Below, piece after piece: positions 51,666 to 64,000 of a stretch of DNA of 64,000 nt (the first letter of the stretch is position 1; every line of letters begins with the position of its first letter). The position numbers and the translations under genes were made by a program. The notes under the pieces were generated by a model. That model had not been told where the DNA came from, ran no database searches, and was given only the letters and a program-made list of their open reading frames with translations. Source of the stretch: an uncultured Sphingomonadaceae bacterium (GTDB lineage Bacteria; Pseudomonadota; Alphaproteobacteria; Sphingomonadales; Sphingomonadaceae); contig CANMFX010000003.1 in the NCBI GenBank assembly GCA_947497315.1, forward strand, positions 372,001-436,000, given 5' to 3'.

Positions 51666-52480
51666 TGCGCGCCTTGCTGGCTAGTCTGGCCATTTCTGCG
51701 GGGCTCTATTTTGCAATCGTGGCATTGGCTTACAGTTTCCAGCGTGATCTGCTCTATTTTCCTAGTCAAACCGTACTTTCAGAAAAACAATTGGAGGAGG
51801 CGGGCTTTGAAGCTGTCAAAATAGCATCAGAAGGTGCCGCCGAACTATCGTCCCTGTGGCGCCCTCCTGCCGATCAGACGAAACCGGTTATCATTCACTT
51901 CCATGGCAATGCCGGCTCGCTAGCAGTGCGCTTGCCCATTTATCAGGCCATGGCGCAAGATGGCGCAGGCGTGCTGGCTGTCGGATACCCGGGTTATGGC
52001 GGTAATCCCGGCGCGCCGAGTGAAGAAGCCTTCTACAAGGCGGCACAGGCTCATTATGACTGGTTGCTCGTCCAGGGCTATGGTGCTGACCGGATTGTCA
52101 TTGCAGCTCAGTCTCTGGGAACCGGTGTGGCGATATGGCTGGCATCTCGTAACGACGCTTCCGGTCTGATTTTGGAAGCGGCCTATACCGGCATGGATGA
52201 GATGGCCCAGCGACAATTCCCGATCCTCCCAGCGAAACTGCTGATAAAGGACCGTTATCGTTCGATCGAGCGGATAGACCAAATTGATATGCCGCTAATC
52301 TGGATACATGGCACGAATGATGAACTGATACCCTTTGAGATGGGACAACGACTATTTGACGCTGCCAAGGAGCCCAAAATCGCACAGCCGATTAAAAATG
52401 GTGGGCATAATGATCTTTGGATGCGCGGGATTGACGCAATCGTGCGTGATGGAGCCCAGCGTTTTGTGTCCGGAGGCTAA
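51665..52480 (+). CDS. Alpha/beta hydrolase, membrane-anchored
   Basis: A 271-residue hydrolase with an N-terminal membrane helix or uncleaved signal (LLASLAISAGLYFAIVALAYS) and an ABHD13/Bem46-like catalytic domain: VIIHFHGNAGS, VGYPGYGGNPG, nucleophile elbow AAQSLGTG, and the late HGTNDELIP and GGHNDLW for Asp and His. Substrate unknown. It is coupled to xthA and converges on the serine hydrolase gene with a four-base overlap. Confidence 0.85.
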   Translation: MRALLASLAISAGLYFAIVALAYSFQRDLLYFPSQTVLSEKQLEEAGFEAVKIASEGAAELSSLWRPPADQTKPVIIHFHGNAGSLAVRLPIYQAMAQDGAGVLAVGYPGYGGNPGAPSEEAFYKAAQAHYDWLLVQGYGADRIVIAAQSLGTGVAIWLASRNDASGLILEAAYTGMDEMAQRQFPILPAKLLIKDRYRSIERIDQIDMPLIWIHGTNDELIPFEMGQRLFDAAKEPKIAQPIKNGGHNDLWMRGIDAIVRDGAQRFVSGG

Positions 52481-53643
52481 CTTTCTGGCTGAGGAGTTGA
52501 TGCCCTCTGCCACTCCCGCAACATGTTATAGGCCACGGCGCTGGCCGGACCGTCACCCGTCAGCGCAACGGCGGCATATTGGAGTGATGCCGGGTCGATC
52601 ATTACGAAAGCTTTTATCCCCGGCATTCCGCCGGCGTGGCCAATCCAGATAGCCGGTTCACCGTCAGGCCCCGGTGCTCGCATGGCCATGACGCCGAGCC
52701 CGTAAAACATGTTCTTGTCAAACATAGGGTAAAGGGTCGAAAACATTACATCGCGCGTGTCAGAGCTAACCAGATCCCCATTTAGAAATGCGCGCCAGAA
52801 AAGAACCATGTCTGAAGATGTTGCAGCCATTGGTCCAGCCGCGCCGGGCGTACGGATATCAGACTTTTGGTCGCCACTTGGTCGAGGTTTTGCAACATCC
52901 AATAAATTATCACCTATCGTGACCATATAACTGTTTTTAAGACCAATTTTATCGATGATCTTGTTCTGAATAACGTCTGATAACGGTTGTCCATAAACCT
53001 GTTCCGCAATTTCACCGAGAAACAGATAGCCGGTGTTGGAGTAACGCCAATATTGTCCTGGACAGAAAAGCGGGCCGTGTTTTTTGAGGATTCTGATATT
53101 GTCTTTCAGGCTGAGCGCTGCTGGCTGGTTTTTGGTGGCGTCCTGATCTTCATTTGCACTGTAAAGGCCGGAGGTGTGATTGAGCAGCATTCTGACAGTG
53201 ATCAAGTCGCCATTGGGCACGCCATCAATCCAGTTAGACAGTTTGTCGTCCAGTGACAGGCGGCCATTTTCGACCAGTTGCATAATAACTATGGCAGTAA
53301 AGCTCTTGCCGACACTGGCCCAATAATGGAGTTTCTCGGAGCCTTGCAAACCTTGTGTTTTGGTCCAGATGGAGCCAGTTTGATCGGCCAGCGCAACAGT
53401 CAAGCTGGTTGCTTTGGACTTTGTCAGCATGTCCGTGAACAGGGCTGCAAAAGCGTCTTGGTCCGTTGGCGCTTGCCTTGGAGATGCTGCAACCATGGTT
53501 GGTATCGCCACCGAAATCGCAGCTTGGCCCACATATTTTATTTCGGCGGAGCATTTTTCTGGTTTTTTTGCAAAAACCTGAATGGGCAGGGCTACTAACG
53601 TAGCGGCTAGAACAAGGCGAGAAGCAGCTTTGAAAGCAATCAT
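52477..53643 (-). CDS. Exported serine hydrolase, class C beta-lactamase fold
   Basis: A 388-residue periplasmic enzyme of the beta-lactamase/transpeptidase-like group. Signal peptide MIAFKAASRLVLAATLVALP. The active-site motifs are SxxK at Ser110 (ASVGKSF), YxN at Tyr201 (YSN) and the HAGGMPG block that stands for KTG, all complete. The group includes AmpC-type lactamases, EstB-like esterases and peptidases; the HAG third motif favours esterase or D-peptidase activity over lactamase. Unknown substrate. Confidence 0.85.
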   Translation of the reverse strand: MIAFKAASRLVLAATLVALPIQVFAKKPEKCSAEIKYVGQAAISVAIPTMVAASPRQAPTDQDAFAALFTDMLTKSKATSLTVALADQTGSIWTKTQGLQGSEKLHYWASVGKSFTAIVIMQLVENGRLSLDDKLSNWIDGVPNGDLITVRMLLNHTSGLYSANEDQDATKNQPAALSLKDNIRILKKHGPLFCPGQYWRYSNTGYLFLGEIAEQVYGQPLSDVIQNKIIDKIGLKNSYMVTIGDNLLDVAKPRPSGDQKSDIRTPGAAGPMAATSSDMVLFWRAFLNGDLVSSDTRDVMFSTLYPMFDKNMFYGLGVMAMRAPGPDGEPAIWIGHAGGMPGIKAFVMIDPASLQYAAVALTGDGPASAVAYNMLREWQRASTPQPES

Positions 53644-53724: not shown

Positions 53725-54879
53725 TTAAATTGCTTTCTCGTAAAGTGTATAGACCCGATTGATCTTGGACTCGATGGCATCGGCAATCGCCACCATCCCC
53801 TTATTGTCATCCAATATCCATCCGATTTCCCCGCGCGTCGCGCCATAGTTGGCAACGGCTTCCCGGCGGATATATTCGATCATCATAAATGCCATTTGAC
53901 TGGCCATCCGGCTGTTTTGCAAATCCTTGACGACACCCATTAGCGGTACGCGCATGGTCGGCGACGTCGGAAATTTAAGCCACCAAAGGAGTTTGGCCCA
54001 GTTGAACGGCAGCAAACTGCCTTTCATTTTTTTAATTCGGTCATTGAGGTCGGGTAACGACATCATAAAAGCTACCGGTTTGCCGTCCAGCTCAGCAATC
54101 ATGATCAGGTCTTCATATACAATCGGTTTCAATTTGACGCCAACATGGTCAATCTCATGATCTGTCAGCGGAACAAATCCCCAATTGTCCGACCAAGCAT
54201 CATTGAGGATATTCATGATGATTTTGGCATCGCGGTCAAAATGTCTCTTATCGACTTTGCGCAATCTCAGTTTGCCGCTGCGTTCTCCGGATTTCACAAT
54301 CCGCTCAATCAGCGGTGGGAAACCCTCTGTGATGGGTAAATCATACGTGATCAGTTCTTTTACGCTCTTGTAACCGTCTGCTTCAATCCAGCCTTGATAA
54401 TCTGCCTTATGATGCCCCATCATCACGGTCGGGCTATGATCATGACCCATGGTGAGCAGGCCGGGCTCGTCCCATACAGACAGGCTCATGGGGGCGATGA
54501 TGCGATGCATCCCTTGTTCTTTCAGCCATTTCTCCGCCGCCTTGATTAATGCTTTTGCCGTGGTTTCATTCTCTGCTTCCAGAAGACCCCAATTGCCGGT
54601 GCCGGGGCCCAGGCCCTTTTCGACAGGCTGTTCCAAGGCCAGATGATCGATATGCGCGCTAATCCGGCCGACGATTTTCCCGTCGTCTTCGGCGAGGAAA
54701 AGCTGAACCGTCGCATGTTCAAAAAAAGGGTTCTTTTTGGGAGTCAGAAGTGCGTAAACCTCAGATTTTAGAGGCGGTACCCAATGCGGATCATTTGCAT
54801 TTAAACGATAGGCCAGTTCGACAAAGCTTTTGAGCTGGGCCTTGGTGGTAACGGGTTTTATGATTATATGCGACGACAC
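53725..54879 (-). CDS. GNAT-like acyltransferase, candidate bacterial ceramide synthase (bCerS)
   Basis: A 384-residue protein of the GNAT superfamily with two domains. The N-terminal part (WVPPLKSEVYALL, PKKNPFFEHATVQLFLAEDDGKIVGRISAHID) and the stretches GPGTGNWGLLEAEN, IIAPMSLSVWDEPGLL and HDHSPTVMMGHHKADY are typical of a family found near sphingolipid genes in Caulobacter and sphingomonads; the Caulobacter member was shown to N-acylate the long-chain base or its keto form. Its place 8.6 kb from spt supports that role, but neither the acyl donor nor the sphingoid preference can be seen. The start is uncertain: GTG codons at 54879, 54894 and 54915 are in frame; the first of these gives the best-conserved N-terminus. 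Confidence 0.65.
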   Translation of the reverse strand: MSSHIIIKPVTTKAQLKSFVELAYRLNANDPHWVPPLKSEVYALLTPKKNPFFEHATVQLFLAEDDGKIVGRISAHIDHLALEQPVEKGLGPGTGNWGLLEAENETTAKALIKAAEKWLKEQGMHRIIAPMSLSVWDEPGLLTMGHDHSPTVMMGHHKADYQGWIEADGYKSVKELITYDLPITEGFPPLIERIVKSGERSGKLRLRKVDKRHFDRDAKIIMNILNDAWSDNWGFVPLTDHEIDHVGVKLKPIVYEDLIMIAELDGKPVAFMMSLPDLNDRIKKMKGSLLPFNWAKLLWWLKFPTSPTMRVPLMGVVKDLQNSRMASQMAFMMIEYIRREAVANYGATRGEIGWILDDNKGMVAIADAIESKINRVYTLYEKAI

Positions 54880-54887
54880 TGTAATTA

Positions 54888-54915
54888 TTTGCACCTTTTG
54901 CGTGATAATTTGCAC
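54888..54915 (-). repeat. Tandem 21-bp-period repeat at the start of the ceramide-synthase-like gene
   Basis: GTGCAAATTATCACG and GTGCAAATAATTACA stand in direct repeat with a 21-bp period, giving TTTGCAC on the plus strand at 54888-54894 and 54909-54915. Two helical turns apart, they could be tandem protein-binding sites; each also contains an in-frame GTG, which makes the start codon ambiguous. Confidence 0.45.
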
Positions 54916-55069
54916 TTAGCTTTGCCATGCTGTGGCGTTATTCAGACCAGCATGTCAAGCGCTTGGGCCTGTCTCGCCTGTGTTGAAGGCCGGAGCGAGA
55001 AACCATAGCAATGCCATCATCTCGCCATGATGTACTGCTGTAGGCATCACATTACGAAGACAGGATATT

Positions 55070-56164
55070 ATGAAACATTCTCCCCCTCAGGCCACAGATG
55101 CCGCGAAAGCCCCGGCTTTTGATGATAATGAACTGATCCGCACGGCCGCGAAAGTCACGCGTGACCTTAACGCTGTTCGCCCTGTTATCTATTGGTCAGA
55201 TTTGCTGGCTTCCACTGTGATTGGCTATGCTGCCATGGTTGCCGCGATCATGCTCGACAATATCGGTGTAGCGATACTGGCGGCTATTGTCTCGGTTCTG
55301 GCGCTCTATCGGGCTGGCAGCTTCATTCATGAACTGACCCATATCCGACGTGGTGCGCTGCCAGGTTTCCGCTTTGCCTGGAATGCTCTGATAGGTGTTC
55401 CGCTATTGCTTCCGTCTTTCATGTACGAAGGGATTCATAATCTCCACCATGCTCGCACGCGCTATGGTACCGTCGAAGATCCGGAATATTTGCCGCTGGC
55501 CCTTATGAAACCTTACACTGTGCCGCTGTTTGTGCTGGTATCGGCATTGGCGCCGGTTGGTCTGTTCATCCGTTATGCGCTGCTGGCGCCGCTATCGGCT
55601 GTGATTCCGCCACTTCGAAAACTGGTTGTTGAGCGCTATTCCGGCCTGATTATCAATCCGGAATTTCGTCGCCGTCCACCGGAAGGCGATTTTAAAAAAC
55701 AATGGTATGCACAGGAAATTGCGGCAAGCATCTGGGCTATTGCTGTGCTTACGGCCGTGGCTACGGGGTTTTTGCCATTGAGAGCATTTTTGATAGCTGT
55801 TGCGATTGCAGCGGGCTCGGTGGTGCTCAACCAGATTCGCACGCTGGTTGCCCATCTCTGGGAAAATGATGGCGAAGTCATGAGTGTGACCGAGCAATAT
55901 CTCGACAGCGTGAATGTTCCACCTCCCGGGCTTTTGCCGGCTTTATGGGCGCCAGTTGGACTGCGCTATCATGCGTTACACCACTTGTTGCCGGGCGTTC
56001 CTTATCATGGACTGGGTGAGGCACATCGGCGTATTGCCGAAGCGTTGCCGAAAGGATCGACCTACTATCGGGCCAATCATACCAGCCTATGGGGTCTGGT
56101 GATGGGATTGGTGCGGGGCAGTTCTGGCCACGCGGCGTCTAGCCAGTCAAACGCAGCCAGCTAA
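55070..56164 (+). CDS. Membrane fatty acid desaturase/hydroxylase family protein
   Basis: A 364-residue integral membrane di-iron enzyme. Three histidine boxes are present: HELTH (87-91), HNLHH (123-127) and HALHH (301-305), with a fourth motif NQIRTLVAHLWEND at 254-267. Two pairs of membrane helices lie between them. Such enzymes desaturate or hydroxylate acyl chains. Position next to the ceramide-synthase-like gene suggests a sphingolipid or its acyl chain as substrate, although a phospholipid desaturase is the conservative reading. It is divergent from that gene and 2 bases from the convergent lptG stop. Confidence 0.8.
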   Translation: MKHSPPQATDAAKAPAFDDNELIRTAAKVTRDLNAVRPVIYWSDLLASTVIGYAAMVAAIMLDNIGVAILAAIVSVLALYRAGSFIHELTHIRRGALPGFRFAWNALIGVPLLLPSFMYEGIHNLHHARTRYGTVEDPEYLPLALMKPYTVPLFVLVSALAPVGLFIRYALLAPLSAVIPPLRKLVVERYSGLIINPEFRRRPPEGDFKKQWYAQEIAASIWAIAVLTAVATGFLPLRAFLIAVAIAAGSVVLNQIRTLVAHLWENDGEVMSVTEQYLDSVNVPPPGLLPALWAPVGLRYHALHHLLPGVPYHGLGEAHRRIAEALPKGSTYYRANHTSLWGLVMGLVRGSSGHAASSQSNAAS

Positions 56165-56166
56165 GG

Positions 56167-57255
56167 TTATTCTTCTGTTCGTATCAACACTGTTTCGCCG
56201 ATCAGGAAGAACAGAATGAACGGCGCCCAGGCCGCCAATATCGGCGGGTAGGCACCGATTGTTCCCATGGCGAGCGAGAAGTTGTCTGCGACAAAATAGG
56301 CAAAGCCAAGCGCCATCCCAAGTACTGCGCGGACGAATAACTGTCCTGACCGCGCCAGACCAAAAGCAGCAACTGCGCCAAGTAGCGGCATCAATATCGC
56401 AGACAAGGGCCCTGAAATCTTGTGCCACAGACTGGCCTCGAGCGCCATCGTTGGCCGTCCCGCCTCTTTCAATTCCGCAATGGCGGACCTTAACTGCGGG
56501 AAGGACAAGCCATCTGCTTTGACATCCGCCAGCGTGAATTGGTCAGGGCGCAAAGTGTCACCGACTGTGATGCTGTCCCTTTTTTCCTCCGTACCGGTCA
56601 GCACGTTAAACTGGGTTACGCCCGTTACGGTCCAAGATGATCCGGTGAACCTTGCCTCGTCACCTTGCATCAGGCTGCGCAAGCCGCTGTTGGTCCGGTT
56701 ATAGACAGTTATATCTTCCAGAACCACATCCGTACCACGGCCAGTCACGGTCTTTGCGTTGACCAGATTGTCTCCGTCTTTGACCCAAACGTTGGTCCGG
56801 ACATTGCTCGCGGCCGGGACTGGTCCATAATCAACCTTCTCCCAGGCTGAAAGCTTGGCTGTAGCCGGTGCCACAACAATTTCGTTGAACAGAAAAGATA
56901 TAATGGCGACGAACAGGCTCGTAATGATCAAGGGCGCCAAAATCTGATGCGCGGAGAGTCCGCCAGCTTTCATCGAAATAACTTCGCTATTCTGGTTCAG
57001 CGTCGCGGCAGTTATGATAGTACCCAACAGCACTGCAAAGGGCAGAAAACGCTGGATGAGCTGAGGTGCCCGCCATGTTACGTAAGTCCACAGTTCGCTC
57101 TGCCCATTTCCCTCCTGTGCAAGAATGCGCCCGCTTTCACCAAGTAGATCCAGCGCCTGCAACACCAGCACCAAAAGCGCCAGCACGGCCAGGGTTCGCA
57201 ACATCAGCATTTTCGCCATGTAGAGGGCGAGCGTTCGCGACGGGAAAAAATCCAT
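56167..57255 (-). CDS. lptG: LptG-type permease of a lipid exporter
   Basis: A 362-residue inner-membrane protein of the YjgP/YjgQ family: six membrane helices, three on each side of a periplasmic beta-jellyroll domain of about 170 residues. MDFFPSRTLALYMAKMLMLRTL, FLPFAVLLGTIITAATLNQNSEVISMKAGGLS and the last three helices match LptG. LptG, LptF and LptB2 form the ABC exporter that lifts LPS from the inner membrane. It is 39 bases after lptF on the same strand. Whether this pair carries LPS or a sphingolipid cannot be read from sequence; no lptA, lptB or lptC gene is here. Confidence 0.88.
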   Translation of the reverse strand: MDFFPSRTLALYMAKMLMLRTLAVLALLVLVLQALDLLGESGRILAQEGNGQSELWTYVTWRAPQLIQRFLPFAVLLGTIITAATLNQNSEVISMKAGGLSAHQILAPLIITSLFVAIISFLFNEIVVAPATAKLSAWEKVDYGPVPAASNVRTNVWVKDGDNLVNAKTVTGRGTDVVLEDITVYNRTNSGLRSLMQGDEARFTGSSWTVTGVTQFNVLTGTEEKRDSITVGDTLRPDQFTLADVKADGLSFPQLRSAIAELKEAGRPTMALEASLWHKISGPLSAILMPLLGAVAAFGLARSGQLFVRAVLGMALGFAYFVADNFSLAMGTIGAYPPILAAWAPFILFFLIGETVLIRTEE

Positions 57256-57294
57256 GTCTATGCGTCTCCGTTCTTGCCGGTGAGGCCACTAAGT

Positions 57295-58506
57295 CTAATC
57301 CCGAACATCGGCGCGCTTTCGATTGAAATTGAGAATGCTTTTGAACACACCGCCAAATTTTGAAAAAGCCTTTTCCAGTGCAGCGATTGGCTGTCCGCCT
57401 GGGACATTCGCGACCATATGATACATCCAGATAATGAGCCCGCCGAACAGCGCGAATGGAACCCACAGGGCGATAATGGGGTCAACAATGCCGAGCGCTC
57501 CCAAGTCTTCACCATATTGGTTGACCTTGTGATAAGTCACAATCATGACAATTGAAATGAAGACACCAAGCGCGGAATTGGATCTTTTTGGCGGTATTGC
57601 CAAGGCCACAGCCAATAGCGGCATCAACAACATCATGACCACTTCGACCATACGGAAATGGAAGTTTGCGCGGCTTTGATTGCGCTCGATCTCGGAGCGA
57701 TCTTGATCCAGTCCCACTCTGACAAGCTCCGGAATTGTATATTCCAGGTCAGCACCGCCTCTCGATCGAAACGCCTCGATATCCGGAAGGTCGATAGGAA
57801 GATCATGGCTGCTAAAACTTAATATCCTCGGTTTTTCGTAAGTTGGCGCATCATGGATCAGCACGCCTTGAGACAAACGCAATATGATTGTGTCGGGATC
57901 ATCCGTCGCCAGAAACTGGCCATTTTCGGCGGTGACAGAGACGATTTGACCGGATTTGTTTTCAGCCCGGACAAACATGCCGCTTAACTTGGTTCCGTTA
58001 TCACGGCTTTCTTCGATCCGCATTGTCATTCTGGAGCCCAAATTGGTGAATTCGCCGACTTTTATCGACGCTCCCAGCGCACCGGAGCGCAGTTCGAAGC
58101 GCAGTTCTTCGTAATAGTAGCGCGACAGTGGCTGGATGAACCCGACCAATGCAAGATTCACCAGCATCAGTGACACTGCGAACATGTAAGGCACTTTCAA
58201 AAGGCGGGCATAACCCTGGCCAACCGCCCGAAAAACGTCCAGTTCGGAGCTTAGGGCGAGTTTTCGAAAGGCCAGCAATATTCCCAGCAACAGGCCGATA
58301 GGGATACCGAGTGAGAGATATTCGGGAATAAGGTTCGCCAGCATTCGCCAGACCACGCTGACCGGTCCGCCCTCTGCCGCGACAAAGTCAAATAGCCGCA
58401 GCATCTTTTCCAGTACGAGCAACATCGCCGCGATAACCAGCGTGCTAAACAGCGGAACGGCAATCAAACGGGCTATGTAGCGATCAGTGGAACTGAGAAA
58501 TTTCAA
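57295..58506 (-). CDS. lptF: LptF-type permease of a lipid exporter
   Basis: A 403-residue partner of LptG with the same six-helix plus jellyroll plan. RYIARLIAVPLFSTLVI, RMLANLIPEYLSLGIPIGLLLGIL, LSSELDVFRAVGQGYARLL (coupling helix region) and MPLLAVALAIPPKRSN are LptF-like. The start is a TTG at 58506, with GAGGG 11 bases before it. The longer C-terminal tail (about 30 basic residues) is cytoplasmic. Its divergent neighbour is a DUF2141 gene. Confidence 0.88.
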   Translation of the reverse strand: MKFLSSTDRYIARLIAVPLFSTLVIAAMLLVLEKMLRLFDFVAAEGGPVSVVWRMLANLIPEYLSLGIPIGLLLGILLAFRKLALSSELDVFRAVGQGYARLLKVPYMFAVSLMLVNLALVGFIQPLSRYYYEELRFELRSGALGASIKVGEFTNLGSRMTMRIEESRDNGTKLSGMFVRAENKSGQIVSVTAENGQFLATDDPDTIILRLSQGVLIHDAPTYEKPRILSFSSHDLPIDLPDIEAFRSRGGADLEYTIPELVRVGLDQDRSEIERNQSRANFHFRMVEVVMMLLMPLLAVALAIPPKRSNSALGVFISIVMIVTYHKVNQYGEDLGALGIVDPIIALWVPFALFGGLIIWMYHMVANVPGGQPIAALEKAFSKFGGVFKSILNFNRKRADVRD

Positions 58507-58631
58507 CTTATCGTCGCCCTCTTACCATGTTTCTGCCGCAAATCATTTTCATAACCACATTTATATCAGGGGGTTGATTCTCTATCCGCAGCAGTTTGAA
58601 CGCGGGTATAACGACTAGGAGTATTTTCGTC

Positions 58632-59114
58632 ATGTTGAAAATTGCAGCGTCTTTTGCGCTTTCAACCGCCCTTTTGGCTATGCCAGTGTCGGCAGCGACC
58701 GCCGGACAGAAAATTTCGAATGATCTGAGCAGATGTCAGGCCGGCAACGGCCCTGCCGTCTTGGTGAATATAAGCGGCGTCAAGGCGGCATCCGGAAAAA
58801 TCCGGGTGCAAAGCTATCGCGGGACCAAGGCTGAATGGCTGAAGAAAGGCGCCTGGATCAACCGGATTGAAGCGCCGGCAAAGAACAACAATATGACCTT
58901 TTGTGTGCCCGTCCCATCCAGTGGGATGTACGGCATTGCCGTGCGCCATGACGTGAATGGCAATGGCAAGACCGATATTTCCAAAGATGGTGGCGGTATG
59001 TCGAACAATCCGAGCATCAATATCTTTAACCTGGGGAAACCCAGTTACAAGAAGACCAAATTTGCGGTCGGTGACGAAGTGAAATCTATCAGTATCAAAA
59101 TGAAATATCTGTGA
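58632..59114 (+). CDS. DUF2141 secreted protein
   Basis: A 160-residue exported protein with signal peptide (MLKIAASFALSTALLAMPVSA) and the DUF2141 domain: RVQSYRGTKAEWLKKG, GMYGIAVRHDVNGNGKTDIS and EGMSNNP-type (here GGGMSNNPSI) motifs, a calcium-type DxNxNGKxD loop included. Two cysteines may pair. AGGAG precedes the ATG well. DUF2141 proteins are common and unassigned; this one starts an apparent four-gene run with the kinase, Tam41-like and cupin genes. Confidence 0.83.
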   Translation: MLKIAASFALSTALLAMPVSAATAGQKISNDLSRCQAGNGPAVLVNISGVKAASGKIRVQSYRGTKAEWLKKGAWINRIEAPAKNNNMTFCVPVPSSGMYGIAVRHDVNGNGKTDISKDGGGMSNNPSINIFNLGKPSYKKTKFAVGDEVKSISIKMKYL

Positions 59115-59149
59115 TGGGCAGATATTAAAGAGAAACAGGCAATCGAATA

Positions 59150-60124
59150 ATGGCCAATGTAGCGCTACTTTCTAATCCAAATTCCACGGGTAACCGTGCG
59201 ATATTGCCGGAAGTGCGCTCTTATTGCGTCAAAAACTGCGATGTTTTCCACTATGAGGTGGATGCTGTTGATGAGATCACCAAGGCGCTGCAAACCATCG
59301 CCAGAGTGAAACCCAAGGTTCTGGTGATTAACGGTGGTGATGGCACCGTGCAGGCCGCTCTTACAGAATTGTATCAGGGTGGACATTTTGGTGATAATCC
59401 GCCGCCAGTTGCCGTACTGCCCAATGGCAAAACCAACTTGATCGCTCTGGACCTTGGCGCAGAGGGTAATCCATTAAAGGCGCTGGAACGTATTGTCGAA
59501 ATGGCAAAACATGATCTGCATGAGCATCTGGTCGACCGCGAACTGATTGCCTTGTCTGATGGCAACAAAGATAGCAAGGTCGTCCTCGGCATGTTCCTTG
59601 GCGGCGCTGGCCTGTCCGAGTTTATTCTTTATTGCCGTCACAAAATTTATCCTTTGGGCTTGCCCAATGCGGCTTCCCATGTTTTGACGGTTTTTGCGGC
59701 GCTGGCCTCGGTTCTGTTTGGAATAAGAGCGAAGTTTCTGCCGAACCGGCCTTCACCGATCAGTATTTCGCTGATCAAAAAGGGGCAATATCAAGGCAAT
59801 TTTGCAATTTTGATCGTAACAACACTTGAAAAACTATTGTTGATGCGCCGTTTTACACGTTCGCGGAGCAAACGCGGACGCCTGCAATTCATGGCGATCG
59901 ACCAGAAACCGATGGTGCTGGTCCGTTTCATCCTGTCAGTGTTATTTGGCCGGCTGGGTAAAACCGTGCAAAAAGGTATTCATCTTGAGCAGGGTGACAT
60001 GATCCGGATTGAGGGTAAGAATAGCAATGTTGTTATGGATGGCGAACTTTTCCGCGCAAAGGAAGGCCAGCCGATTGTTTTGAAATCAACGAAGCCGGTA
60101 TCTTTCCTTCGCCTCGCTGCTTAG
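59150..60124 (+). CDS. Diacylglycerol-kinase-family lipid kinase, candidate ceramide kinase
   Basis: A 324-residue cytoplasmic or peripheral lipid kinase. The catalytic loop NGGDGTVQAAL is at 62-66 and its surroundings (VLPNGKTNLIALDLG, then IRIEGKNSNVVMDGELF) match the DAGK/LCB5 superfamily of YegS, sphingosine and ceramide kinases. Position between sphingolipid genes suggests that it phosphorylates a ceramide or long-chain base, as CpgB does in Caulobacter; diacylglycerol is the alternative substrate. Confidence 0.72.
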   Translation: MANVALLSNPNSTGNRAILPEVRSYCVKNCDVFHYEVDAVDEITKALQTIARVKPKVLVINGGDGTVQAALTELYQGGHFGDNPPPVAVLPNGKTNLIALDLGAEGNPLKALERIVEMAKHDLHEHLVDRELIALSDGNKDSKVVLGMFLGGAGLSEFILYCRHKIYPLGLPNAASHVLTVFAALASVLFGIRAKFLPNRPSPISISLIKKGQYQGNFAILIVTTLEKLLLMRRFTRSRSKRGRLQFMAIDQKPMVLVRFILSVLFGRLGKTVQKGIHLEQGDMIRIEGKNSNVVMDGELFRAKEGQPIVLKSTKPVSFLRLAA

Positions 60125-60139
60125 GCTATCATCCGCCGG

Positions 60140-61042
60140 GTGAATCATCTGAAACCCCTTGTAGAAGAGGAGCTGGCAGAGCCGGTTGATCCTCGTGTAT
60201 CTGCTTTCGCAGAGGCGGTCGCTGCGCAATATGGCGATGCGTCCCGTGCGGTTCTCTTTTATGGTTCTTGTCTGAGAACAACCGAGCTCGAAGGACAGAT
60301 GCTGGATTTCTATCTGATCGTGTCCAGTTATGAAGCAGCCTATGGGAAAAGCTGGCTGGTGCGCGCAAACGAGCTGCTGCCGCCGAATGTGTTTCCGGCC
60401 GAGCATGACGGACTGGTCGCCAAAATTGCGGTGCTGAGCGAAGAGGATTTTCACAAGTTAAATGGACTAGAGGCCAGCGCAGTGAGTGTATGGGCGCGCT
60501 TTGCGCAGCCGTCACGTCTGGTCTGGTGTGCCGACGACGCGGCGCGTGAAAAAGTGGCGGCGGCGATTGCCTGTGCGCCCGTGACCCTGTTTGAGCTCAC
60601 CTTGCCGGTGCTGGGAATTCAGCCGCAGGCGCCCATACTGGTCTGGCATCGGGGTTTCGAACTGACTTATGGGGCAGAGTTACGAGCCGAACGGGCCAAT
60701 CGCCCTGGCTCCGTCGTTGATGCTGATCCCGAGCGCTATCAACGATTTGGTCTCGCCACGATGGTAACCCTGCAAGATCAGGATCCATCTGAATCTGGCG
60801 AGATGTCGACCGCAGAAGCGGAGAAACGTTGGAAGGCGTTGCGCCGCAATGGCAAGCTGCTCACCCTCGCGCGGCTGGCAAAAGCGTCTGGAACCTATGC
60901 TGGCGGGATTGATTATCTTGCGTGGAAGATCAACCGTCATGCTGGTACCGACTATGTGATCAAGCCATGGCAACGCAAATGGCCGATACTGGGCGCGCTT
61001 ACCATGTTGCCAAGATTAATTGCCGGTGGAGCGATTAAATAG
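60140..61042 (+). CDS. Tam41-like nucleotidyltransferase, putative
   Basis: A 300-residue protein resembling mitochondrial Tam41, the CDP-diacylglycerol synthase with a polymerase-beta fold. Support is the motif FYGSCLRTTELEGQMLDFYL (Gly42-Ser43, then Asp56 13 residues later), which parallels Tam41's YGS...MVDF pattern; the rest is divergent. The second acidic residue of a normal Dx[DE] pair is Tyr here, as in Tam41. GTG start 15 bases after the kinase stop. In this cluster it could make a CDP-activated lipid from the kinase product. Family assignment is moderate, role is inferred. Confidence 0.55.
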   Translation: MNHLKPLVEEELAEPVDPRVSAFAEAVAAQYGDASRAVLFYGSCLRTTELEGQMLDFYLIVSSYEAAYGKSWLVRANELLPPNVFPAEHDGLVAKIAVLSEEDFHKLNGLEASAVSVWARFAQPSRLVWCADDAAREKVAAAIACAPVTLFELTLPVLGIQPQAPILVWHRGFELTYGAELRAERANRPGSVVDADPERYQRFGLATMVTLQDQDPSESGEMSTAEAEKRWKALRRNGKLLTLARLAKASGTYAGGIDYLAWKINRHAGTDYVIKPWQRKWPILGALTMLPRLIAGGAIK

Positions 61043-61079
61043 GGTAGAATGTGCGCCTGCATTTCAGGGAGGCGCTACT

Positions 61080-61475
61080 ATGGCTGACAAACTAACCGAT
61101 AACCCGATACATCTGGGACTAGGTGCAACAGCATTTTCCGAACCCCGTTTTACTGGCGATCCGGCTTGGTATCAGGCCTATGGTGAACGTCATGCCGATG
61201 ATGGCGCAGAGGGACGCCTTGTGTCGCTGCACCATTTTACTGAACCGTGGACAGTATGGGAAATGCATCCTGTCGGTGCTGAAGCCGTTGTTTGTGTCAA
61301 AGGCGAAATGTCCCTCATTCAGCAAATGGAAGATGGGTCAGAGAGACAAATCGCGCTCAGGGAGGGCGAATATGCGATCAATCCCCCCGGCGTCTGGCAC
61401 ACGGCAGACGTGGAAGGAGAAGCAACCGCACTCTTCATTACGGCAGGGCAGGGCACCGAAAATCGCGATCGTTAA
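61080..61475 (+). CDS. Small cupin-domain protein
   Basis: A 131-residue single cupin. The core WEMHPVGAEAVVCVKGEMSL followed by REGEYAINPPGVWHTADVEG shows the double-stranded beta-helix motifs with one clear His in motif 2 (VWHTA) and a weak motif 1 with a single His. It might bind a metal and a small ligand or act as an isomerase; no substrate is evident. AGGGAGG is six bases before the ATG. It ends the plus-strand run, with the enoyl-CoA hydratase stop ten bases on. Confidence 0.8.
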   Translation: MADKLTDNPIHLGLGATAFSEPRFTGDPAWYQAYGERHADDGAEGRLVSLHHFTEPWTVWEMHPVGAEAVVCVKGEMSLIQQMEDGSERQIALREGEYAINPPGVWHTADVEGEATALFITAGQGTENRDR

Positions 61476-61484
61476 GCGATCGAT

Positions 61485-62279
61485 CTAGCGGTCCTTATAG
61501 TCTGGCTTGCGCTTGCTGAAAAAGGCTTTGGCGGCTTCGCGGCTGTCCTCGGTCATGCTGAGCATGGCTTGCTGTCGGTCTTCAATCGCCATGGCCGCTT
61601 CAAAACTCTGAGCGTCGATATTGCGGTTAAGCGCATCTTTGGTCAGTCGCAGGCCCATGGGCGCTGTATCGAGCATTTCTTCCGCGAGAGAGAGACCAGT
61701 GCTGACCAATTTATCTTCGTCAGCAACTTCGCTGATTAGCCCCAGTTTTTCAGCGCGTTCAGCATGAATGAACCGGCCGGTCAGAAGCAATTCCGATGCG
61801 AGCGAAGATCCGACCAACCGCGGCAAGAAATAGCTCGATCCCATATCGCATCCGCCCAGGCCGATTTTAATATAGGCCGCGTTCATTTTCAGGCTGGGTG
61901 CACCATAGCGGACGTCACTGGCCAGCAGCAGAGAAAAACCGCCGCCGCAGGCCGCGCCCTGAGCCAATGATATGATCGGCTGCGGACATTGCCGCATAAG
62001 TTGCATGACCGTGGCTATGGATCGCTGCGTCCGCCAGATATGTTGAACCTGCCCACGCGAGCCATCATTTTTCCAGGCACCGATGTCTAGACCTGCACAA
62101 AAGGCTCGTCCCTCTGCGCGAAACAGGACAACCCGGACATCATACCGGTCCTGCAGCCCTCGAAAATAGTCCTGCAGTGCGAAGATCATGTCTTCGTTCA
62201 TCGTATTGAGCTTATCCGGCCGATTGAGTGAGAGAATTTCAATCGCGCCGCGTTGTTCGATGAGCAGGCTGTTAGTCAT
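61485..62279 (-). CDS. Enoyl-CoA hydratase/isomerase family protein
   Basis: A 264-residue crotonase-fold enzyme. AFCAGLDIGAWKNDG and ISLAQGAACGGGFSLLLASDVRYG are the two oxyanion-hole blocks, and GLGGCDMGSSYFLPRLVG is where hydratases carry catalytic Glu residues; this site has Asp/Gly instead of the usual Glu pair, so activity may be isomerase-like or altered. The ATG at 62279 follows GGGAG. It lies 21 bases downstream of spt and is probably cotranscribed, suggesting acyl-CoA supply or breakdown connected to sphingolipids, although that is not established. Confidence 0.85.
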   Translation of the reverse strand: MTNSLLIEQRGAIEILSLNRPDKLNTMNEDMIFALQDYFRGLQDRYDVRVVLFRAEGRAFCAGLDIGAWKNDGSRGQVQHIWRTQRSIATVMQLMRQCPQPIISLAQGAACGGGFSLLLASDVRYGAPSLKMNAAYIKIGLGGCDMGSSYFLPRLVGSSLASELLLTGRFIHAERAEKLGLISEVADEDKLVSTGLSLAEEMLDTAPMGLRLTKDALNRNIDAQSFEAAMAIEDRQQAMLSMTEDSREAAKAFFSKRKPDYKDR

Positions 62280-62300
62280 TCGTGTCTCCCACAAGGAGGG

Positions 62301-63500
62301 TCAGATCGCTCCAACCGCTTTGCCGGCTGCCTCAAACATGCCCAGGATCTGGTCGACCTGTTCGGTCGTATGCTCGGCACAAAGTGAGCAACGCAACAAG
62401 GTCATGTTTGCCGGAGTTGCCGGTGGTCGCGCAAGATTGACATAGAGGCCTTCCGCAAGCAGCGCCTGCCACATCATCGCACCGCGTTCGAGGTCCGGCA
62501 TGATGACCGCGATAATCGCGCTTTGCGCTTCCGGCGTACCGAGTTCAAAGCCCAAATCGCGCAGGCCTTTGTGGAGCTTCTTGCTGTTTTCCCACAAATG
62601 CGCGCGCTTGTTGCCGCTGTGCATCAGCTTGCGGATCGAGGTGCTGGCTGTTGCCATTACGCTTGGTGGCAGCGAGGCCGTGAACACATAGGGGCGGCAT
62701 ACCAGACGCATGATTTCAAATTTCGGATGGTTGGAGACGCAGAATCCACCGACGGTTCCCACCGACTTGCTGAACGTTCCAATGATGAAATCGACATCGT
62801 CGATAACGCCTTGTTCTTCACAGACGCCGCGGCCATTTTCACCGATAAAGCCCATTGAGTGCGCTTCATCAACCAGGGTCATGGCGCCGTTTTCCTTGCA
62901 GATACGGATCATTTCCTTGAGCGGCGCAACATCGCCAAGCATCGAATAGACGCCTTCAAGCACGACAAGCTTGCCAGCGTCTGCGGGCAGACGCTTCAAT
63001 CGTTTTTCCAGTGCTTCGACATCATTGTGGCGGAACGCGACAATTTCTGCATTACCCATGGAACAGCCGTCATAGATGGACGCATGGCTGTCGATATCCA
63101 GAATGACATAATCACCCTTGCCGGCCAGCGCAGAGATAATTCCCAGGTTGGCCTGATAGCCCGTGGAAAAGACCATCGCATGGTCCATCGCGTAAAATTC
63201 TTTGAGCGCCTCTTCGCAATCTTTATGCGGGCTATATGTGCCGTTGAGAACGCGGCTGCCGGTTGTTCCAGAGCCAAAGTCCTTGAGCGCCTGAAGTCCG
63301 GCCTGCTGGACATCATCGTCAAAGGTCATGCCCATGTAGTTATAGGTGCCGAGCAGAATGGTTTCCTTGCCATTGCATATGGCAACAGTGGGCGATTTCA
63401 CTTCTTCCATTACCAGTGAAAAAGGGTCCTTAACGCCGGTTGCAAGCAGGGTTTCGCGTTCCTGAATCAGCGGATCATATTTACTCAGAAGGTCGGTCAT
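62301..63500 (-). CDS. spt: Serine palmitoyltransferase
   Basis: First committed enzyme of sphingolipid synthesis: condenses serine with palmitoyl-CoA or palmitoyl-ACP to 3-ketodihydrosphingosine using PLP. The 399-residue protein belongs to the alpha-oxoamine synthase family and matches the soluble homodimeric Sphingomonas SPT: His139 in DIDSHASIYDG stacks on PLP, Asp211 and His214 are in VDEAHSMG, and the Schiff-base Lys245 is in GTFSKSVGTVGG. It is encoded downstream of its acyl carrier protein, 54 bases apart. Confidence 0.95.
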   Translation of the reverse strand: MTDLLSKYDPLIQERETLLATGVKDPFSLVMEEVKSPTVAICNGKETILLGTYNYMGMTFDDDVQQAGLQALKDFGSGTTGSRVLNGTYSPHKDCEEALKEFYAMDHAMVFSTGYQANLGIISALAGKGDYVILDIDSHASIYDGCSMGNAEIVAFRHNDVEALEKRLKRLPADAGKLVVLEGVYSMLGDVAPLKEMIRICKENGAMTLVDEAHSMGFIGENGRGVCEEQGVIDDVDFIIGTFSKSVGTVGGFCVSNHPKFEIMRLVCRPYVFTASLPPSVMATASTSIRKLMHSGNKRAHLWENSKKLHKGLRDLGFELGTPEAQSAIIAVIMPDLERGAMMWQALLAEGLYVNLARPPATPANMTLLRCSLCAEHTTEQVDQILGMFEAAGKAVGAI

Positions 63501-63554
63501 TATACTCTCGTGTTTTCGTCATCTTGAAACGGGTTCCGGATGCCGATTATGCTG

Positions 63555-63800
63555 TTACTGATCCATCAACTTGGCAACGGCGTCGGCAAGCTGACCGACA
63601 TTTTCGATTTCGGCCTGCATGTTCATGGTAATGATAATATCAAATTCATCTTCCACCGCAGCGACAAAATCCATCACCGTCAGGCTGTCCCACTCCAGAT
63701 CGCCTGCAAAAGTGGTAGCATCTTTGAGTTCCACGCCCTTGTTGTTGAAAGGGCCAATCAAGGCTTCCACCTTGGCCATAATTTCTTCGCGACTTGCCAT
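63555..63800 (-). CDS. Acyl carrier protein, SPT-associated
   Basis: An 81-residue carrier protein with the phosphopantetheine site Ser39 in LEWDSLTVMDF and the helix II region FVAAVEDEFDI. Unlike fatty-acid AcpP (DSL preceded by GAD), this EWDSL form belongs to the specialised ACP found beside spt, which presents the acyl chain to serine palmitoyltransferase. GGGGA lies seven bases before the ATG. First gene of the acp-spt-enoyl-CoA hydratase operon. Confidence 0.9.
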   Translation of the reverse strand: MASREEIMAKVEALIGPFNNKGVELKDATTFAGDLEWDSLTVMDFVAAVEDEFDIIITMNMQAEIENVGQLADAVAKLMDQ

Positions 63801-63843
63801 GTTTAATTCCCCAATATCCGGCCTGCTTCATTCCTAGCAACCT

Positions 63844-63870
63844 TTGCCAATGTGAAGCCCCCATTGGCAA
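63844..63870. repeat. Perfect 9-bp inverted repeat in the acp divergent promoter
   Basis: TTGCCAATG and CATTGGCAA flank a nine-base spacer, 44 to 70 bases upstream of the acp start and before the divergent gene at 63986. It is a good candidate for an operator controlling the sphingolipid operons. Confidence 0.5.
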
Positions 63871-63985
63871 GTGAATAAGGCCGAAACAGGGCACAAGGGT
63901 GGGCATATGCGCCGTAACTTGCCCAATTGCGCCGATTATGTCACTCTTGCGGCGCACCGGGTCGCGCCTGTGCGGAGGGTGAAAC

Positions 63986-64000
63986 ATGACCGAGGACCGA
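63986..64000 (+). CDS. 5' end of a gene, product unknown
   Basis: ATG at 63986 follows CGGAGGGTG at a good distance and opens with MTEDR before the window ends. It is divergent from acp. In related genomes an acyl-CoA/acyl-AMP ligase or ceramide reductase gene often lies here, but five residues cannot show it. Confidence 0.4.

What the first reader, a model, noticed from the sequence alone, without database searches (positions are those of the whole stretch)
53725..64000. Sphingolipid synthesis, modification and export locus
Seen: serine palmitoyltransferase (PLP Lys245 motif) next to an SPT-type acyl carrier protein, a GNAT protein of the bacterial ceramide synthase type, a diacylglycerol-kinase-family enzyme, a Tam41-like nucleotidyltransferase, a three-His-box membrane oxygenase and an LptF/LptG pair within 10 kb. 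Known: in Caulobacter, spt, a GNAT ceramide synthase and a ceramide kinase are clustered and make ceramide and anionic sphingolipids. Inferred: the window shows a related locus with extra genes (desaturase, Tam41-like, cupin, hydratase) that may define a modified sphingolipid not yet described in this genus.
Basis: partly seen in the sequence, partly recalled or inferred. Interest (0 to 1): 0.78.

Follow-up and report, generated by a model that had tools for sequence, protein, structure and literature searches.

The report
Sphingolipid locus holding sole LptF/LptG pair
A bacterium that lacks the key gene for making lipopolysaccharide keeps its only LptF/LptG lipid-export pair inside a sphingolipid gene cluster, which suggests that machinery known for exporting lipopolysaccharide carries sphingolipids to the cell surface here.

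Summary

The unexpected part is LptF/LptG. LpxC was not found in the window genome or in any of 147 sampled genomes of its order. The genome has one LptFG pair, this one, and one LptD. Of 20 chosen genomes with this gene set, 6 of 6 with LpxC have two LptFG pairs, 14 of 14 without have one. In a tree all 23 pairs from LPS-less genomes group with the cluster pairs. The other pair, beside pepA and/or lptD in 5 of 6 LPS-makers, is gone: in 11 of 13 LPS-less loci pepA abuts lptD.

Best reading: this pair exports sphingolipids through a retained Lpt bridge, a step two 2024 papers call unknown. Comparative inference, not experiment.

The parts
53725..54915 (-). GNAT-family protein, probable bacterial ceramide synthase (bCerS / CC_1154 position); start codon uncertain
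   Evidence: PF00583 just over cut-off; accompanies LptG in 34 of 37 stretches of the window's family that hold LptG
55070..56164 (+). PF00487 membrane oxygenase, probable ceramide acyl hydroxylase (slot shared with PF04116 FA_hydroxylase)
   Evidence: PF00487 E 4.7e-30; three His boxes; slot holds a homologue of it in 24, of the PF04116 protein in 33, both in 0, neither in 27 of 84 loci
56167..57255 (-). LptG, sphingolipid-cluster type (LptG2)
   Evidence: TIGR04408 301.7 bits over cut-off 240; tree
57295..58506 (-). LptF, sphingolipid-cluster type (LptF2), TM1 motif LEKM
   Evidence: TIGR04407 239.7 bits over cut-off 230; tree; motif
58632..59114 (+). DUF2141 protein, recurrent member of unknown role
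   Evidence: PF09912; in 11 of 40 and 13 of 20 SPT-centred stretches
59150..60124 (+). CpgB-like ceramide kinase candidate
   Evidence: PF00781 E 9.6e-15; GGDG at 62, no CxxxCxxC
60140..61042 (+). CpgC candidate: Tam41-fold nucleotidyltransferase, proposed CTP:ceramide-1-phosphate cytidylyltransferase
   Evidence: fold; within 1.5 kb of the kinase in 104 of 105 loci that hold both
61077..61475 (+). cupin protein, not a conserved neighbour
   Evidence: PF07883; 1 of 40 and 0 of 20 stretches
61485..62294 (-). enoyl-CoA hydratase family protein, not a conserved neighbour
   Evidence: PF00378; 2 of 40 and 0 of 20 stretches
62301..63500 (-). serine palmitoyltransferase (spt), PLP Lys245
   Evidence: NF047603 795.6 bits over cut-off 670
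63555..63800 (-). acyl carrier protein (acpR position), Ser in DSL
   Evidence: PF00550 E 9.1e-9; in 40 of 40 and 19 of 20 SPT-centred stretches

Best explanation
The window holds a version of the alphaproteobacterial sphingolipid cluster. Spt with its ACP condenses serine and an acyl group; the GNAT protein adds the amide-linked acyl chain; an SDR about 1.8 kb past the window end (CerR candidate) reduces the ketone; the PF00487 oxygenase hydroxylates the acyl chain. The CpgB-like kinase makes ceramide-1-phosphate and the Tam41-fold, CpgC-like protein activates it with CTP (CDP-ceramide) for head-group transfer by an enzyme not identified here. The finished sphingolipid is pulled from the inner membrane by LptF2/LptG2, the only LptFG pair in a genome without detectable LpxC, and passed through the retained Lpt bridge (LptC and LptD found) to the outer leaflet, the job LPS export does elsewhere. 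Shown: gene content, fold, gene order, absence of LpxC hits, single LptFG pair and LptD, two LptFG classes, and the missing LPS-type pair beside lptD. Inferred: every substrate, the CDP-ceramide step, acyl hydroxylation, and the transported lipid. LptA, LptB and LptE were not searched for.
For: Own genome: 2 PF03739 hits, both in the window; LpxC 0; LptD 1; LptC 1. Order sample: LpxC 0 of 147; PF03739 in 138 of 147, exactly two hits in 122. 20 chosen genomes: 6 of 6 with LpxC have four PF03739 hits, 14 of 14 without have two over cut-off. Tree of 36 concatenated LptF+LptG pairs with E. coli as outgroup: the 6 non-cluster pairs of LPS-makers form one clade; their 6 cluster pairs plus all 23 pairs of LPS-less genomes the other; bootstrap 100 each. 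LptD: exactly one hit in 80 of 80 genomes, with or without LpxC. pepA beside lptD without LptFG between in 11 of 13 LPS-less loci (own gap 262 bp); in LPS-makers F1-G1 are adjacent in 5 of 6 genomes, beside pepA in 4, directly beside lptD in 3. Where LptFG is not beside spt, it still lies with the GNAT gene in 19 of 20 stretches. LptF TM1 [ED][KR] in 28 of 29 cluster-type rows, 0 of 6 others. Tam41 fold.
Against: No biochemical or genetic data from a sphingomonad. 9 of 147 order genomes show no PF03739 hit (3 of them at least 90% complete and at most 5% contaminated), among them small genomes with a strong spt match; 16 of the 138 have a number other than two (15 more, 1 fewer), not examined. 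In the window's family the pair is beside spt in only 19 of 40 stretches. The 20 genomes were chosen by me (8 of 13 class-sample hits, 12 of 80 named loci). LpxC state changes at least four times on the LptFG gene tree; the four independent comparisons agree, but four cannot reach significance (sign test p 0.125). It is a gene tree with long branches, and G268's cluster pair nests among LPS-less relatives, so transfer occurs. NCBI's equivalog models name both classes as LPS exporters. LptC was not detected in 13 of 64 genomes. No homologue of the CDP-alcohol transferases used as queries was seen in the 60 order stretches or in the window and neighbouring stretches of its genome, so the head-group step is unassigned.
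Confidence: 0.75

Rival explanations
1. The locus makes and modifies sphingolipids, but the LptFG pair carries another lipid, or is kept for some other envelope role; its place beside sphingolipid genes is historical.
For: NCBIfam equivalogs call both genes LPS export permeases; LptF is not beside spt in 21 of 40 stretches of the window's family.
Against: The retained pair does not group with the separate pair of LPS-makers; that other pair is what is missing beside lptD; LptFG stays with the GNAT gene where spt is elsewhere (19 of 20); the same class sits in the cluster in 6 genomes that also keep a separate pair and LpxC.
Confidence: 0.17
2. The PF00487 protein is a true sphingoid-base or acyl desaturase that defines a modified sphingolipid.
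For: Pfam FA_desaturase family.
Against: The same slot holds a PF04116 fatty acid hydroxylase homologue in 33 of 84 loci and never both; a DesA-family protein, CC_0202, is reported to hydroxylate the amide-linked acyl chain in Caulobacter (PMC11324152). CC_0202 itself was not compared.
Confidence: 0.25
3. The kinase and Tam41-like pair act on diacylglycerol/phosphatidate (a Tam41-type CDP-DAG route), not on ceramide.
For: Fold is that of CDP-DAG synthase Tam41; CpgB phosphorylates DAG in vitro too (PMC10331486).
Against: Caulobacter cpgB and cpgC mutants lose ceramide phosphoglycerate (PMC12275187); the pair lies beside spt in 15 of 20 stretches from other families of the order.
Confidence: 0.15

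Closest known systems
Caulobacter crescentus sphingolipid cluster CC_1168-CC_1152 (ccna_01210-01226)
   Same: By published gene order: acpR, spt, CC_1161 (cpgC), CC_1160 (cpgB), LptF2/LptG2, CerS in the same sequence
   Different: No LpxC and no second LptFG pair found in the window's genome; no match to the Dongia-type genes standing at the CC_1159/CC_1158 positions in the window or in 60 order stretches; the oxygenase lies inside the locus, whereas Caulobacter's DesA-family CC_0202 is elsewhere; cupin and hydratase inserted. Caulobacter sequences were not compared directly
E. coli LptB2FGCADE LPS transporter
   Same: LptF/LptG family PF03739, with LptC and LptD each found once in the genome
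   Different: A different LptFG class from the pair of alphaproteobacterial LPS-makers, with its own LptF TM1 motif; no LPS to carry; substrate inferred to be sphingolipid
Tam41 mitochondrial/bacterial CDP-DAG synthase (PDB 7ecd, 6ig4)
   Same: Fold match over 220 of 300 residues; GS...DF nucleotidyltransferase-like motif
   Different: About 15% identity; no sequence-family hit; beside a ceramide kinase candidate, so ceramide-1-phosphate is the likelier substrate
FA2H-type fatty acid hydroxylases (PF04116)
   Same: Same genomic slot, presumed same reaction
   Different: Different Pfam family (PF00487 in the window)

Membership tests
Serine palmitoyltransferase (alphaproteobacterial) | NCBIfam NF047603 over curated cut-off; PLP lysine in TFSKS | tested here: met
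   795.6 bits vs 670; Lys245
CpgB ceramide kinase | lipid kinase domain with GGDG and without CxxxCxxC (per PMC10331486) | tested here: met
   PF00781; GGDG at 62, no CxxxCxxC
CpgB ceramide kinase | phosphorylates ceramide | not testable with these tools
   needs enzyme assay
CpgC / CC_1161 | position next to cpgB and spt | tested here: met
   kinase within 1.5 kb in 104 of 105 loci holding both, duplicates not removed; kinase, Tam41-like and spt adjacent in Hyphomonas L207 and Kordiimonas L176
CpgC / CC_1161 | sequence orthology to Caulobacter CC_1161 | not tested
   Caulobacter sequence was not obtained
Tam41 CDP-DAG synthase fold | Tam41 fold over most of the protein | tested here: met
Tam41 family (Pfam/NCBIfam) | sequence-profile match | tested here: not met
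   no Pfam family at E up to 10, no NCBIfam family at 0.001
LptF/LptG | PF03739 and TIGR04407/TIGR04408 over cut-offs, tandem pair | tested here: met
LPS-type LptF1/LptG1 | groups with the non-cluster pair of LPS-making genomes | tested here: not met
   outside that clade, bootstrap 100
LptF2/LptG2 sphingolipid-cluster type | groups with the cluster pair of LPS-making genomes | tested here: met
   bootstrap 100; TM1 motif; Caulobacter's own LptF2/G2 not in the tree
Bacterial ceramide synthase (bCerS) | GNAT protein at the cerS position | tested here: inconclusive
   PF00583 just over cut-off, position conserved; Caulobacter bCerS sequence not compared
Bacterial ceramide reductase (CerR) | NAD-dependent epimerase/SDR beside acp and spt | tested here: inconclusive
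   PF01370; in 18 of 40 and 17 of 20 stretches; Caulobacter CerR not compared
Sphingolipid acyl hydroxylase | three His boxes and hydroxylase activity | tested here: inconclusive
   His boxes present; activity not testable; slot exclusivity

The most novel reading that the evidence does not exclude
Alphaproteobacteria carrying this cluster have lost LPS more than once, and in the cases seen the LPS-type permease pair beside lptD is gone while the sphingolipid-cluster pair remains, so that the whole Lpt trans-envelope bridge of the Sphingomonadales (single LptD included) became a sphingolipid exporter. LptFG then comes in two substrate classes that current annotation lumps together as LPS export.
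Probability: 0.7. Interest if true: 0.75.

Novelty: new variant of a known kind. Interest (0 to 1): 0.63.

Why it matters
How bacterial sphingolipids reach the outer membrane is stated as unknown in PMC11324152, and PMC11087976 reports that no flippases or lipid transporters had been identified. LPS-less sphingomonads are a natural deletion experiment: what remains of the Lpt system must be the part that does not need LPS. If right, one knock-down (lptF/lptG) in a sphingomonad tests the route directly, and 'LPS export' names in these genomes mislead. It also gives CpgC, whose mechanism is unassigned (PMC12275187), a specific enzyme hypothesis (CTP:ceramide-1-phosphate cytidylyltransferase).

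Tried and rejected
Cupin and hydratase as pathway genes: rejected as conserved members. A shared 2-kb gene between the Tam41-like gene and spt proved to be a hybrid histidine kinase family in 25 loci (domains read for one member); the window has cupin and hydratase there instead. The P450 beyond the window end as a peroxygenase-type fatty acid hydroxylase: not supported; its NCBIfam matches are to other P450s, all under cut-off. LPS-contact residues of E. coli LptG/LptF as a substrate test: equivalence of K34/K40/K41 depends on the alignment, so only the contrast within alphaproteobacteria is used. PDB sequence search with the Tam41-like profile: one non-significant hit. Viral fold library: nucleotidyltransferases, TM-scores about 0.2-0.4. 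Paper searches for prior statements of Lpt-mediated sphingolipid export: the only relevant one found was PMC11324152, which proposes it for Caulobacter and says transport was not investigated; (CDP-ceramide) found nothing. I saw passages of only some of the listed papers. The library is open-licence only, so a subscription paper or preprint could exist; the Zik et al. 2022 paper was not held.
Full report
Observation. Spt passes the NCBIfam alphaproteobacterial equivalog (795.6 bits, cut-off 670) and has Lys245 in TFSKS; the kinase has GGDG and no CxxxCxxC, as reported for CpgB. Beyond the ACP lie a PycTM-like gene, a P450 and an SDR/epimerase that is a CerR candidate (L003).

Naming. 'The window's family' is code f1; I read it as Sphingomonadaceae because its cluster proteins are closest to named Sphingomonas and Sphingobium loci, but no f1 stretch coincides with a named locus. 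Three stretches of other families of the order do coincide with named records, one titled Sphingomonadales bacterium (L110 = L163).

Conservation. Sixty SPT-centred stretches were taken from 60 of the 147 sampled genomes of the order, 40 of 64 from f1 and 20 of 83 from other families, and mapped by tblastn at 45 bits or more. Other families (20): ACP 19, kinase 19 (4 of them, L121-L124, without a Tam41-like gene; 23-25% identical), LptF 17, SDR 17, AasR 17, LptG 15, GNAT 15, Tam41-like 15, DUF2141 13, oxygenase 1, cupin 0, hydratase 0. f1 (40): ACP 40, LptF 19, SDR 18, LptG 17, GNAT 15, kinase 11, Tam41-like 11, DUF2141 11, oxygenase 10, AasR 2, hydratase 2, cupin 1. Eighty named loci fetched with the Tam41-like family (best 80 of 558 confirmed, so biased to loci that hold it) show the gene set in Kordiimonas, Iodidimonas, Dongia, Azospirillum and many sphingomonads in the window's order, and in Hyphomonas with LptFG turned round. 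Kinase and Tam41-like lie within 1.5 kb, start to start, in 104 of 105 loci that hold both, out of 153 mapped, duplicates not removed. PMC11324152 (section 8 part 1, sections 9 and 13 read) describes the Caulobacter cluster and calls the genes scattered in the two Sphingomonadales it examined, S. wittichii and Z. mobilis; here they are together in the window and in a good part of its relatives.

In f1 the Tam41-like protein is patchy: 44 of 64 genomes have a match at 0.001. Of these 21 are at 50% identity or more, 16 of them within 10 kb of spt; 23 are at 32-42%, none within 60 kb of spt on the same contig, possibly paralogues. The tally for spt (147 of 147) counts any match of the model, which also rings in 12 of 14 control genomes, E. 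coli included; 65 of 147 pass the equivalog cut-off.

LptFG in genomes without LpxC. The window genome has two PF03739 hits, the pair in the window, no LpxC hit, one LptD and one LptC. In 147 genomes of the order LpxC is found in 0, while the control rings in E. coli and Caulobacter; PF03739 is found in 138: exactly two in 122, one in G085, three to five in 15 (not examined); none in 9, of which 3 are at least 90% complete and at most 5% contaminated. LptD occurs exactly once in 80 of 80 genomes searched. LptC was found in 51 of 64.

Two classes of LptFG. I chose 20 genomes that hold the Tam41-like gene: 8 of the 13 class-sample genomes with a match (own genome apart) and 12 behind the 80 named loci; 15 lie outside the window's order by title or sample, 5 are Kordiimonas, Iodidimonas and three sphingomonads. 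The 6 with LpxC (G240, G268, G171, Hyphomonas G287, Azospirillum G289, G290) each have four PF03739 hits; the 14 without have two over cut-off, G293 and G296 with one further sub-cut-off fragment each. A tree of 36 concatenated LptF+LptG pairs with E. coli as outgroup puts the 6 non-cluster pairs of LPS-makers in one clade and their 6 cluster pairs plus 23 pairs of LPS-less genomes (these 14, the window and 8 of the order) in the other, bootstrap 100 each. LptF TM1 has an acidic-basic pair ([ED][KR]) in 28 of 29 cluster-type rows (R-7 has QR) and in 0 of the 6 others; all 20 further f1 LptFs read have it. LpxC state changes at least four times on the LptFG gene tree; in four independent comparisons pair number goes with LpxC each time, too few for significance (p 0.125).

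The missing pair. Around lptD (mapped; families checked for the window genome and G290), LPS-makers have F1-G1 adjacent in 5 of 6 genomes (in Azospirillum the two lie on separate contigs), next to pepA in 4 of 6 and directly upstream of lptD in 3 of 6. In 11 of 13 LPS-less loci pepA and lptD are direct neighbours with 176-552 bases between the matched ends and no LptFG; in the window's own genome 262 bases, followed by surA, pdxA and ksgA. In the other 2 (Dongia mobilis, Aquibaculum) no pepA was matched near lptD. So in the loci seen, the pair that is missing is the one that LPS-makers keep apart from the cluster, and the pair that stays is the cluster type.

Link to ceramide synthesis. In 20 stretches where LptFG is not beside spt (19 from f1 and one from Sphingobium xenophagum), the GNAT gene lies near LptFG in 19 and a homologue of the window oxygenase (17) or of the PF04116 hydroxylase (1) between them in 18; the exception without GNAT, L312, has kinase, Tam41-like, a flippase and an AasR match. 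With 15 of the 17 SPT-centred f1 stretches that hold LptG (the two without GNAT, L075 and L095, run out soon after LptG), GNAT accompanies LptG in 34 of 37.

The oxygenase. Of 153 mapped loci 86 hold both GNAT and LptG; 2 duplicates were dropped. In the remaining 84 the slot between them holds a homologue of the window oxygenase in 24, of a PF04116 FA_hydroxylase in 33, both in 0, neither in 27 (Fisher 6e-7, no correction for relatedness). L151 has the PF04116 protein in the slot and a window-oxygenase homologue elsewhere. Both types occur in f1 (PF04116 homologue in L095, L100 and L310). PF04116 is the family of eukaryotic FA2H (recalled). In Caulobacter a DesA-family protein, CC_0202, is reported to hydroxylate the amide-linked acyl chain (PMC11324152). 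Sphingomonas sphingolipids carry 2-hydroxy acyl chains, attributed to P450 enzymes (PMC10002949, passages). The window gene is therefore most likely the acyl hydroxylase; this is inference. In Kordiimonas and others a flippase-like protein also lies in this slot (L120 PF01943/MatE; L176 38% identical to it but without a Pfam hit).

State of knowledge. [quoted passage not shown] it proposes LptC2/F2/G2 for Caulobacter and did not investigate transport. PMC11087976 (passages): no flippases or lipid transporters identified yet. LPS contacts of LptF/LptG: PMC6744409 and PMC5548808 (passages). PMC2635482, PMC10094684 and PMC10964400 (passages) mention LPS-less Sphingomonas, without Lpt proteins there in the passages seen. 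My searches showed no paper that uses LPS-less lineages as evidence; the library lacks most subscription papers.

Verdict. A real, conserved sphingolipid locus of a known kind. Its notable feature is that it carries the only LptFG pair of a genome without LpxC, of a class distinct from the pair LPS-makers keep beside pepA and lptD. That supports sphingolipid export by the Lpt bridge and makes it directly testable. A new sphingolipid structure is not supported.

Noticed in passing
L003:1986-2504 (starts at window 63986 and runs past the end): PycTM (Pycsar effector domain) gene beside the acyl carrier protein gene; a homologue lies in 16 of 40 spt stretches of the window's family.
   Followed up: partly
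L074:10617-12587 and 24 other loci: CHASE3-HisKA-REC hybrid histidine kinase between the Tam41-like gene and spt in 25 loci, possibly a regulator of the locus.
   Followed up: partly
L003:2512-3720: Cytochrome P450 gene between the ACP and the SDR in the window genome; not matched in the 60 order stretches.
   Followed up: no
G009, G022, G033, G037, G042 (family f2): Small genomes of the order with a strong spt match but no PF03739 hit; G022 still has LptD.
   Followed up: no
L179, L203, L216: Tam41-like gene with a kinase and CDP-alcohol transferase homologues in genomes titled Nitrospirales.
   Followed up: no
L265 (G268): Cluster LptFG of an LPS-making genome nests beside Iodidimonas-like pairs, suggesting horizontal transfer of the cluster.
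   Followed up: no
G143:C1:671046, G050:C1:2630014 and others: Divergent Tam41-like proteins (32-42% identity) far from spt in 23 genomes of the window's family; paralogue or relocated gene.
   Followed up: no
L121-L124 (family f8): spt neighbour matches the kinase at only 23-25% identity and no Tam41-like gene is seen; possibly a different kinase.
   Followed up: no
window 52477-53643 (-): Serine hydrolase/beta-lactamase-like ORF upstream of the GNAT gene, seen in the ORF list only; label from reading the sequence.
   Followed up: no
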